In this document: in pieces, positions 6,187-8,720 of the stretch
How the letters are laid out: each line of letters begins with the position of its first letter
How positions within the stretch are numbered: the stretch's first letter is position 1
Source: Endomicrobium sp.
GTDB taxonomy: Bacteria > Elusimicrobiota > Endomicrobiia > Endomicrobiales > Endomicrobiaceae
Reading direction: 5' to 3'
NCBI GenBank assembly: GCA_031283985.1
Contig: JAITAQ010000051.1
Span: 1 to 14,265 of the forward strand
Length of the DNA stretch: 14,265 nucleotides
Notes under the pieces: model-generated
Told to the model about the DNA's origin: nothing
The model's input: the letters and a program-made list of their open reading frames with translations, nothing else
Database searches by the model: none
Position numbers and translations under genes: made by a program

Positions 6187-7353
6187 ATGGAAATTCGTTA
6201 CAATGAAAAATTAAAAAAATTGCCTCCTTATCTCTTTATTGAAATAGATAGAAAGAAAAAAGAAGCAATAGACAGAGGTGCAGACATAATATCTTTAGGA
6301 GTTGGTGATCCTGATATACCTACTCCTGAACATATAGTAAAATCTATGCAGGAGGCGGTTGCAAAGCCTTTTAATCATCAATACCCGTTTGGGACAGGTT
6401 TGCTTTCCTACAAGAAAGCTGTTATAGATTGGTACAAAAATAGATTTAACGTTGACTTGAATAGTGATGAAATTTGTGCTCTTATTGGTTCAAAAGAAGG
6501 TATAGGGCATATTCATTTAGGATTTATAAATCCAGGAGATACTGTTTTAATTCCAGAACCCGGTTACCCAGTATATAATACTGGAACAATTTTTACAGAT
6601 GGCATTCCGTACTTCATGCCTTTACTTGAAAAAAACGGTTTTTTGCCTGATTTAACCTCTATACCTCAAGATGTCGTCAAAAAAGCAAAATTGATTTTTA
6701 TAAATTATCCTAATAATCCTACGGCTGCTGTTGCTCCGAAAGAATTTTATATAAGGCTTATAGAATTTGCCAAAAAGAATAATATAATCGTAGCTGCAGA
6801 CGCCGCGTATTCTGAAATATACTATGATGAAAATGACAAGCCTTTAAGTTTCCTTGAGTTTTCAGGAGCAAAAGAAGTCGGTGTGGAATTTCATTCGCTT
6901 TCCAAAACCTACAATATGACAGGTTGGCGTATAGGGTGGGTGTGCGGAAATAAAGATATTGTTGCAGGTATTGCTAAAGTTAAGGATAATTACGATTCTG
7001 GAGTTTTTCAAGCTATTCAAGAAGCTGCTATTACGGCATTATCATCTTCCCAGAAATGTGTTGAGGATGCTAGAAAAATATATAAAGAACGCAGAGATGT
7101 TTTGGTTGAGGGTTTAAAAAAAATCGGTTGGGAAGTAAGTTTGCCCAAAGCTTCGTTTTATGTTTGGGCTAAGATTCCAAAAGGATACACTTCTTCTCAA
7201 GTAGTTTCAAAACTTCTTGAAGACGTATCCATTGTCTGCACTCCTGGTAACGGTATGGGAAAAAGTGGTGAGGGCTATGTGAGATTTGCTTTAACTGTAG
7301 GTGTCTCAAGAATTAAAGAAGCTTTGAAACGTATAAGCAAAATTAATTGGTAA
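6187..7353 (+). CDS. dapL: LL-diaminopimelate aminotransferase DapL
   Basis: A fold-type I PLP aminotransferase of 388 residues. SLGVGDPDIPTPEHI near residue 36, PEPGYPVYNTG near 123, NYPNNPTAAV at 173-182, the PLP lysine K240 in SLSKTYNMTGWRIGW and the carboxylate-binding R366 in GYVRFALT are the standard class I landmarks. The overall style is that of the DapL branch, which turns tetrahydrodipicolinate directly into LL-diaminopimelate using glutamate. Context supports this: dapA, dapB, dapF and lysA lie just upstream, and no dapD, dapC or dapE is seen. A broader aspartate or alanine aminotransferase role cannot be excluded from sequence alone. GGAG (6173-6176) lies ten bases before the ATG and AGAG is nearer. 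Downstream comes about 1 kb without an intact gene. Confidence 0.85.
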   Translation: MEIRYNEKLKKLPPYLFIEIDRKKKEAIDRGADIISLGVGDPDIPTPEHIVKSMQEAVAKPFNHQYPFGTGLLSYKKAVIDWYKNRFNVDLNSDEICALIGSKEGIGHIHLGFINPGDTVLIPEPGYPVYNTGTIFTDGIPYFMPLLEKNGFLPDLTSIPQDVVKKAKLIFINYPNNPTAAVAPKEFYIRLIEFAKKNNIIVAADAAYSEIYYDENDKPLSFLEFSGAKEVGVEFHSLSKTYNMTGWRIGWVCGNKDIVAGIAKVKDNYDSGVFQAIQEAAITALSSSQKCVEDARKIYKERRDVLVEGLKKIGWEVSLPKASFYVWAKIPKGYTSSQVVSKLLEDVSIVCTPGNGMGKSGEGYVRFALTVGVSRIKEALKRISKINW

Positions 7354-7408
7354 AATTCCATATATTTTCCAGTTGCAGATTTTTTAGGCATCAGAACAGT
7401 CAACACTA

Positions 7409-8125
7409 ACAGTTTCCAAGCAATCTAAATATAAAATTTCTATTTTCACCTGTCTGTTTCTCTTCTTGCATTTGTGTTAAAGTAAGTTGTAATTGTTGCC
7501 ATAAAGGAGGAACAAAATTTATTAGATGGAGATTTAGTATTTGTCTCTCTTAGAATCTATTGTATCCTGCTTTATTATTTCACCTGCATGTGTCTTGCTC
7601 GTTCTAAAGGATAAGCCTCTCTATTAATAATATTCCTAGTATGAACCATAAGTCTCATCATCATTGCCAACGAAAACGTCAATTTCACCGTACAGTTCCC
7701 TTGCAAGTGATCTTGCTCTATTTCGAACATTTTGTATCGATGTGATTGCTCTGTTTCTACCTATTATCTCTCTTATTCCGTCATGATCAATAAATGTTTG
7801 TAACAATATTGCTTGTTCTTACTCTACTGACTCTACTGGTATTTGCGTAAATGTTTACGGAAATACTATAGTATAATTGGGAATATAAGTCATTGGATCT
7901 TAAGTTTTCTGTACGCTTTCTCTTTGTTCGTATTCTGGGTATGACGTCATTAGACCATCCTACTGCTAATCTTTCAAATTGTCCTAGTCCATTTCTTAAA
8001 TCTTCTATAGCTCTTAGTATTTCTTGTTTCATATTTATTTATAGTTGTACCTCATTCTAACTCTTCTTTTGCATATTTGCATGTTCATGAAGAGTATCCT
8101 CTCCCACATGCGGTCCGGAAAGTGG
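7409..8125 (-). pseudogene. Decayed coding remnant of unknown family, frameshifted, with many in-frame TAA/TAG
   Basis: Most of the 7354-8342 gap holds a broken minus-strand gene, about 239 codons, followed by joining frames. Segment 1 (8125 to about 7950) includes INMKQEILRAIEDLRNGLGQ; segment 2 (about 7950 to 7639) includes MTSYPEYEQRESVQKT and RARSLARELYGEIDVFVGND; segment 3 (7640 to about 7515) includes INREAYPLERARHMQVK and ILRETNTKSPSNK; segment 4 (about 7516 to 7409, same frame as segment 1) includes FVPPLWQQLQLTLTQMQEEK. Internal stops on this path are TAG 8059-8057, TAA 8041-8039, 7902-7900, 7857-7855, 7821-7819, 7577-7575 and 7574-7572, and TAG 7559-7557; no TGA occurs. The longest standard-code stretch is 60 codons (7818-7639). 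I recognise no family. Strand and state suggest a foreign gene. The rest, 8126-8342, is AT-rich and shows no gene. Confidence 0.55.
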
Positions 8126-8342
8126 TCATGCACTGTGTATTCTGCTACCAATAAATAATAATGATAATTTCATAATTTTCCTTTACTTTTTCTAAGTATT
8201 ACTAACTTTGAATTTATAATATAATACGAAATTTTATTTTGTTAAAACTTTGTGAATTATAACTGGTTTTTCAAATTTTAAAAAAGTCAAATTCTATAAA
8301 AAATGCTAAAATATCAACTATGTATAATGTTTAGGAGAAATT

Positions 8343-8720
8343 ATGGAAAATAAAATGCTTATTTTTGATAAAGTTACATCAAGCTTGCTTGAAGCGATGC
8401 CGTATCAGTATGCAGGAAAAGATATAAATATTTGTATAGAAACTGAAGAATTCACCTGTCTTTGTCCTTGGACAGGTCTTCCTGATTTTGCATATACCGT
8501 TATCAATTATACCCCTGATAAAAATGTTGTAGAGCTTAAATCTCTAAAGATGTATTTACAAAGTTATAGAATGGTTGGTATGATTCATGAAAGCGTGGTA
8601 AATAGCATATTGGGAGATCTGGTTAAAGTTATTGAGCCTAAGAAGATGTCTATAGATATAGAGTTTTGTATAAGGGGGGGAATAATAACGACTGTAAGCG
8701 CTCAATATTTTAAAAAATAG
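8343..8720 (+). CDS. queF: preQ0 reductase QueF (NADPH-dependent 7-cyano-7-deazaguanine reductase)
   Basis: Reduces the nitrile of preQ0 to the amine preQ1 on the way to queuosine in tRNA anticodons. This is the short, single-domain form (125 residues; Bacillus QueF is about 165). The catalytic cysteine is C41 and the acid D48 in FTCLCPWTGLPDFA; the NADPH/substrate motif is ELKSLKMYL (E64 first), and H82-E83 lie in MIHES, all as expected for the tunnelling-fold family. AGGAG at 8333-8337 lies five bases before the ATG. murC begins 17 bases after the stop, so the gene probably leads the murC-ftsZ transcript. No preQ1 riboswitch-like sequence is seen upstream, and no other queuosine gene lies in the window. 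A six-G tract at 8675-8680 sits inside the gene. Confidence 0.92.
   Translation: MENKMLIFDKVTSSLLEAMPYQYAGKDINICIETEEFTCLCPWTGLPDFAYTVINYTPDKNVVELKSLKMYLQSYRMVGMIHESVVNSILGDLVKVIEPKKMSIDIEFCIRGGIITTVSAQYFKK

What the first reader, a model, noticed from the sequence alone, without database searches (positions are those of the whole stretch)
7409..8125. Minus-strand relic whose in-frame stops are all TAA/TAG at glutamine-like positions
Joining four segments in two frameshifted frames plus a return to the first gives a continuous, protein-like product of about 239 codons. Along it are six TAA and two TAG codons and no TGA. Each fits a glutamine in its surroundings, e.g. SVQKT-x-DPMTY, VESVE-x-EQAILL, MQVK-x-x-SRIQ-x-ILRE, and the protein already has many CAA/CAG. 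Hypothesis A: an ordinary foreign gene decayed by C-to-T change (CAA to TAA, CAG to TAG) plus small indels, as expected in an AT-biased endosymbiont. Hypothesis B: the source genome reads TAA/TAG as glutamine (known in ciliates, hexamitid diplomonads and some oxymonads; TAG alone in some phages), which would mean transfer from a protist or virus. The frameshifts show that it is dead now in either case. A is simpler; B would be the more striking result.
Basis: partly seen in the sequence, partly recalled or inferred. Interest (0 to 1): 0.72.

Follow-up and report, generated by a model that had tools for sequence, protein, structure and literature searches.

The report
Dead gene for lysine-free secreted protein
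The stretch is the wreck of an ordinary-code gene in a bacterium that lives inside termite-gut protists, not a trace of a recoded genome; the surprise is that the readable copy in a sister species encodes an export-type protein almost without lysine, one of several such genes there.

Summary
A real minus-strand pseudogene lies between an aminotransferase gene and queF, reaching further than reported (about 8173-7409). A sister species, 'Candidatus Endomicrobiellum devescovinae' (G026), has a readable homologue at the same site that uses CAA/CAG for Gln. In the homologue's frame the relic has four stops, facing Val (a TGA), Pro, Glu and Gln. Decayed copies in two more congeners, and one well-supported clade of the four holders, point to one gain, then decay. 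Recoding (B) is rejected; hypothesis A is right in outline.

Unexpected: the homologue is an export-type protein with no lysine outside its start, in a genome at about 9% lysine, though AAA/AAG are common in its other two frames. G026 has four more small ORFs with a similar signal peptide and lysine-poor, E/Q/R-rich mature parts; descent from a common ancestor with the window gene is not shown. No known family matched. Most likely function, inferred only: export towards the flagellate host, lysine excluded to escape ubiquitin.

The parts
7409..8173 (-). pseudogene of a signal-peptide-bearing, lysine-free protein; reads from an ATG at 8173 towards 7409
   Evidence: alignment with the readable homologue in G026
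8056..8173 (-). 5' part of the relic: decayed signal peptide and start of the mature part; a large deletion relative to G026 follows
   Evidence: alignment; a weak tblastn match of P0002 (16 residues, E 0.07)
7675..8037 (-). best-preserved block (85% DNA identity to G026), holding the in-frame stops that face Pro and Glu
7416..7610 (-). 3' blocks of the relic with a second large deletion near 7512-7518; holds the single Gln-to-TAA at 7552
6187..7353 (+). intact aminotransferase gene (dapL-like by its place among dap genes; name recalled, not family-scanned) upstream of the site
   Evidence: 95% identical to G026 at protein level
8343..8720 (+). queF-like gene (PF14489) downstream of the site

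Best explanation
It is a pseudogene in the bacterium's own standard code. A gene was gained between the aminotransferase gene and queF in the common ancestor of four Endomicrobiellum species. It is still open, apart from one in-frame TAA, in 'Ca. Endomicrobiellum devescovinae', and has decayed in the window species and two others by large deletions, small indels and point changes. Shown: same site, shared clade, frame and stop analysis, near-absence of lysine in the readable copy. Inferred: the living protein is exported by the Sec route (hydrophobic N-terminus ending in C-x-A), reaches the flagellate host that surrounds the symbiont, and is kept free of lysine so that the host's ubiquitin system cannot mark it. 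I give this function about 0.35; the pseudogene reading about 0.96. The confidence below is for the pseudogene reading with a standard code and a single gain.
For: DNA match at the same site in G026, 85% in the core; ORFs P0002 (138 aa) and P0001 (286 aa) in one frame; the relic found by protein search in three pieces of the window; record named Ca. Endomicrobiellum devescovinae, JAIRYK010000021.1. dS of the relic against G026, 0.20-0.24, equals that of five intact neighbour genes (0.16-0.26), so it split with them; dN/dS 0.51-0.64 against 0.12-0.26. Window-branch changes show no deficit at codon positions 1 and 2 (22:14:13). Collinear relics in G015 and G011. The four holders form one clade at 100/100 in a 21-row tree. 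Lysine: 0 of 286 and 1 of 138 residues against 8-11% in five neighbours; of 296 sampled ORFs of at least 100 aa the three lowest are these two and one further ORF of the same design. In-frame AAA/AAG 0 of 405 codons after the signal peptide against 71 of 806 in the other two frames (summed from the rows).
Against: The G026 copy itself carries an in-frame TAA at codon 139 (CAA in G015's relic, TAA in a poor alignment of G011), and its few polarised changes (8:7:4 by codon position) show no sign of constraint, so it may be dying too, or be two genes. Nothing shows that the protein is made, leaves the bacterium or meets ubiquitin. The predicted structure is uninformative (mean pLDDT 42).
Confidence: 0.9

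Rival explanations
1. The source genome reads TAA/TAG as glutamine and the relic came from a protist or virus.
Against: 0 of 8 stops face Gln in the homologue and 6 of 8 are off its frame; the homologue uses CAA/CAG; the relic has a TGA in the homologue's frame; relics in G015 and G011 have TGA as well as TAA stops, with 2 of 11 (G015) and 3 of 10 or 4 of 11 (two G011 contig ends) facing Gln; no match of the pieces searched in phage, plasmid or viral collections.
Confidence: 0.01
2. The lysine-free composition has another cause: a foreign source with arginine instead of lysine, avoidance of lysine modification or of a lysine-specific protease, or a surface or periplasmic role unrelated to the host's ubiquitin.
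For: No experiment supports host delivery; arginine is raised in P0001 (11.2%); clear relatives of the other ORFs of this design were found only in G026 and G023.
Against: Lysine shortage is unlikely: the window holds lysA-, dapA-, dapB- and dapF-like genes (named by eye, recalled) and neighbours have 8-11% lysine. Third-position GC is near that of neighbours (0.21-0.25 against 0.25-0.29), and AAA/AAG are common out of frame.
Confidence: 0.4
3. In the ancestor these were two adjacent genes (a small exported protein and a cytoplasmic one), not one gene interrupted by TAA.
For: P0001 has its own ATG six codons after the TAA; G011 aligns a TAA there (weak).
Against: Both parts share one frame and both are free of lysine and rich in E and Q; G015 has CAA at the site. 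The window is deleted there.
Confidence: 0.3
4. A phage, plasmid or other mobile-element gene left at an insertion hotspot.
For: The same intergenic site carries different cargo in congeners: a nucleotidyltransferase/HEPN-type pair in G033 (a similar pair by eye in G025) and a SocA/Panacea protein in G005.
Against: No family above cut-off in PHROGs and no hit in phages, plasmids or viral contigs (plasmids with P0001 only). Repeat ends and integrases were not searched for.
Confidence: 0.15

Closest known systems
Pseudogenes of Endomicrobium/Endomicrobiellum endosymbionts (10 to 37 annotated per genome in PMC8809381; passages seen)
   Same: decayed gene in an eroding genome of a flagellate endosymbiont
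   Different: this one comes from an orphan, lineage-restricted gene
Lysine deserts (PMC10665810, passages seen; PMC10169902, search listing only)
   Same: long stretch without lysine, thought to prevent ubiquitylation
   Different: in the passages seen, bacterial cases are discussed for taxa with pupylation; here it is an export-type protein of a protist endosymbiont with about 9% lysine elsewhere
Lysine-depleted bacterial AB-type toxins (one sentence in PMC10665810 seen; two reviews in the listing)
   Same: lysine depletion, possibly to avoid ubiquitin-dependent degradation in a eukaryotic cytosol
   Different: no sequence or family match (Pfam, NCBIfam, PDB); no toxin activity or delivery domain seen; the host is a gut flagellate

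Membership tests
Recoded (TAR=Gln) gene | in-frame TAA/TAG where relatives have Gln | tested here: not met
   0 of 8 reader stops; 1 of 4 stops in the homologue's frame
Recoded (TAR=Gln) gene | homologue with many in-frame TAR codons | tested here: not met
   one internal TAA in about 430 codons, 36 CAA/CAG; the TAA does face CAA in G015
Pseudogene of a vertically held Endomicrobiellum gene | same site, same divergence as neighbours, broken frame, readable relative | tested here: met
Lysine desert | at least 150 residues without lysine (one of the definitions in PMC10665810, passage) | tested here: met
   P0001, 0 of 286
Lysine desert | function in avoiding ubiquitin or Pup | not testable with these tools
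   no assay; Pup genes not searched
Small signal-peptide family (xQCWA type) of G026/G023 | sequence similarity of the N-terminus | tested here: inconclusive
   profile A2 found four loci in G026, two of them its own rows, but not this gene at E 0.1; BLASTP of the P0002 N-terminus to the C23 protein E 0.8
Small signal-peptide family (xQCWA type) of G026/G023 | hydrophobic N-terminus ending C/S-x-A and lysine-poor, E/Q/R-rich mature part | tested here: met
Phage protein | match to PHROGs or phage records | tested here: not met
   best PHROG E 0.026 (P0002, unknown function); no phage record

The most novel reading that the evidence does not exclude
Some endosymbionts of termite-gut flagellates carry a fast-turning-over set of exported proteins with a similar signal peptide and highly diverse mature parts from which lysine has been removed, so that they survive in the host cytosol; the window relic is the remains of one of them. 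Gain, lysine exclusion and loss could then be followed species by species.
Probability: 0.35. Interest if true: 0.75.

Novelty: new variant of a known kind. Interest (0 to 1): 0.5.

Why it matters
It closes a tempting recoding claim with a direct homologue test. It also points to a small set of export-type, lysine-free proteins in a protist endosymbiont. If they act in the host cytosol, they would be candidate symbiont effectors recognisable by composition alone, in organisms that are hard to culture or manipulate.

Tried and rejected
Family searches of the relic pieces gave only sub-threshold hits (PhoQ_Sensor E 0.036; DUF4218 E 0.0046, under its cut-off; PHROGs E 0.09 and 0.18); of the homologue, nothing above a cut-off; PDB none (P0001 only). 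One weak phylum hit (G281, E 0.003) lies in a mutase-like gene region (by eye) and was dropped as chance. The MAFFT pair alignment misplaced blocks around the deletions and was replaced by an affine alignment. Structure prediction of P0001 was uninformative (pLDDT 42), so no fold search was made. The missing RF-1 family in G000 was considered as a sign of recoding and dropped: the assembly is 65% complete and the other 39 genomes searched have it. Dropped weak profile hits: three outside the genus (E 0.006-0.009) and three inside (E 0.05-0.07). Low-lysine ORFs in the G038 and G049 samples looked hydrophobic, repeat-like or like frame shadows (by eye); the G038 ones do not appear in the stricter screen and none of G049 passes it. 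Of 20 stretches fetched, 13 were not analysed, because the two flanking genes lie on different contigs. The tree used 21 of the 30 aminotransferase loci fetched. A literature search for Gln-recoding in termite protists (listing only) was not followed.

Full report
What is there. The window (G000:C74) carries a block of plus-strand genes that, named by eye from their sequences (recalled), are phosphate-transport, lysine-pathway and cell-wall/division genes. Between the aminotransferase gene (6187-7353) and a queF-like gene (8343-8720; PF14489) lie 989 bases. No tRNA, no Rfam family at gathering score and no similar phage DNA was found.

A readable homologue. A DNA search of 99 genomes (G000 included) found strong matches in three others, G026 (E 6e-113), G015 (4e-40) and G011 (5e-21); the other 29 genomes counted as matching have only short matches at E 1e-4 to 0.01. 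In G026 the same gap, between the same two genes, holds two ORFs in one frame on the minus strand, separated by one TAA: P0002 (138 aa, hydrophobic N-terminus) and P0001 (286 aa). A protein search of 41 genomes of the genus (G000 included) with P0001 found only G026 and three pieces of the window relic; P0002 found only G026. The GTDB scan named the record: 'Candidatus Endomicrobiellum devescovinae' Gsp477_bin38, JAIRYK010000021.1. That the window belongs to the same genus is the tool's kinship label; its own name is not given.

The stops. 806 of 922 aligned bases are identical. In the homologue's frame, 219 codons align without a gap inside: 143 are identical, 18 synonymous and 58 different (stops included); four window codons are stops: TGA facing Val, TAA facing Pro, TAA facing Glu, TAA facing Gln. 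Of 15 aligned Gln codons of G026, nine are CAA and one is CAG in the window, one is TAA and four are other sense codons. The TGA (8128) lies between small indels, so its column is less certain, although all four stops have no gap within six columns. So 'all stops at glutamine-like positions' is wrong.

Age and decay. dS between window and G026 is 0.20 (0.24 for codons away from gaps), against 0.16-0.26 in dapB, the aminotransferase, queF, murC and murB, so the relic diverged with its neighbours and was not brought in separately; dN/dS is 0.51-0.64 against 0.12-0.26. Collinear relics occupy the gap in G015 (alignment score 691 against at most 105 in five shuffles) and G011 (306 and 358 against at most 84; two contig ends that probably show one place). 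Their stops in the homologue's frame: G015 11 stops (nine TAA, two TGA), 2 facing Gln; G011 contig C33 10 stops, 3 facing Gln (3 of its 5 TAA); G011 contig C28 11 stops, 4 facing Gln, one of them a TGA (the G011 alignment is poor at codon level). The holders G000, G026, G015 and G011 form one clade, support 100/100, in a tree of 21 aminotransferase genes; G013 and G005, which have other content in the gap, are the next branch. So: one gain, then loss in at least three of four. The G026 copy may also be failing: its TAA at codon 139 faces CAA in G015, and the 19 changes polarised to its branch show no codon-position bias (small numbers, outgroup errors likely).

Code. Intact genes of the window end with TAA, TAG or TGA. 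The RF-1 family is found in 39 of 40 genus genomes searched; the exception is G000, whose assembly is 65% complete. Nothing supports recoding.

What the gene encoded. No library or collection had a clear relative: Pfam, PHROGs, NCBIfam, phages, plasmids (P0001 only), viral contigs, PDB (P0001 only), 340 genomes of the phylum apart from one chance-like hit (P0001). The composition is striking. P0001 has no lysine in 286 residues and 11% arginine; P0002 has one lysine, at residue 2; five neighbours have 8-11% lysine and 2-3% arginine. In 331 kb of G026 stretches, 296 ORFs of at least 100 aa average 9.4% lysine; the three lowest are P0001, P0002 and one further ORF. That ORF (G026:C23:120048-120572, 174 aa) has the same design: hydrophobic start ending in QCWA, then an E/Q/R-rich part without lysine. 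Searches with it and with a profile of three N-termini found three more loci in G026 (C4:23862, C4:63215, C3:2650) and two in G023 (C77, whose frame is split; C127, not inspected), and only weak hits beyond the genus among 340 genomes of the phylum; the C23 protein has no relative in viral contigs and no Pfam family. The window gene's own N-terminus is not found by that profile at E 0.1, so common descent with these ORFs is not shown; the shared design is.

Is lysine avoided at the protein level? After the signal peptides, AAA/AAG occur in 3 of 791 codons in frame and 153 of 1570 codons in the two other frames of the five G026 loci (Fisher p 2.5e-24). Five control genes show similar rates in all frames. 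One locus (C23) was chosen for its lack of lysine and is biased; the finding's own locus (0 of 405 in frame, 71 of 806 off frame) and the three loci found by similarity (3 of 231, 37 of 456) were not. The relics have more lysine codons in the homologue's frame than G026 has (window 6 against 1 in 219 codons; G015 29 against 1 in 275), as expected if the exclusion lapsed with decay, but misaligned AT-rich sequence would give the same. A screen for signal-peptide-like, hydrophilic ORFs with at most 1.5% lysine and at least 18% E+Q+R passed 4 of 44 in G026 (2 of these 4 lie in loci added because they had been found by similarity), 0 of 27 in G038, 0 of 45 in G049 (another genus), 0 of 32 in G013 and 0 of 7 in G000 (crude signal-peptide rule). 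So among the congeners sampled the design was seen only in G026, which limits any claim about the genus.

Reading. For an exported protein of a symbiont that lives in a eukaryotic cell, exclusion of lysine is most simply explained by work where ubiquitin is, in the flagellate. Lysine deserts as protection from ubiquitin, and lysine depletion of AB-type toxins, are described (PMC10665810, passages seen). The 2024 genome study of Endomicrobiellum (PMC11257099: abstract and sections 14 and 15 read; word search) has no occurrence of 'pseudogen', 'orphan' or 'devescovinae' in its main text as held. A search for 'lysine desert' found 9 papers, 8 listed, none with a symbiont in its title; one for lysine-free effectors in intracellular bacteria listed one unrelated paper; a third listed 12 of 18 papers, among them reviews of AB toxins. 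Export, host contact and ubiquitin escape are inference.

Noticed in passing
G026:C23:120048-120572 (L104:48-572), G026:C4:23862 (L163), G026:C4:63215 (L165), G026:C3:2650 (L166), G023:C77:441-979 (L156): Small ORFs with a similar signal peptide (xQCWA-like) and lysine-poor, E/Q/R-rich, otherwise diverse mature parts; the G023 copy, near a transporter gene very like the one beside the G026 C23 copy, is split into two ORFs.
   Followed up: partly
gap between aminotransferase and queF in congeners: L074 (G005), L077 (G025), L078 (G033): The same intergenic site holds a nucleotidyltransferase/HEPN-type pair in G033 (a similar pair by eye in G025) and a SocA/Panacea protein in G005, so it is a variable site.
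   Followed up: partly
window 8343-8720; G015:C22:7125-7446; G011:C28:12278-12544: queF is found without internal stops in 21 of 41 genus genomes, broken in G015 and G011, and not found in 18; many of these assemblies are incomplete.
   Followed up: no
window 7354-7367: A hairpin-like inverted repeat after the aminotransferase gene in G026 (gap positions 44-92), perhaps a terminator, is missing in the window, where the gap is deleted at that place.
   Followed up: no
L009:5803-6663: P0001 holds an internal repeat (RAITAIQN-type) about 100 residues apart, 79% alike in DNA over 70 aligned bases.
   Followed up: no
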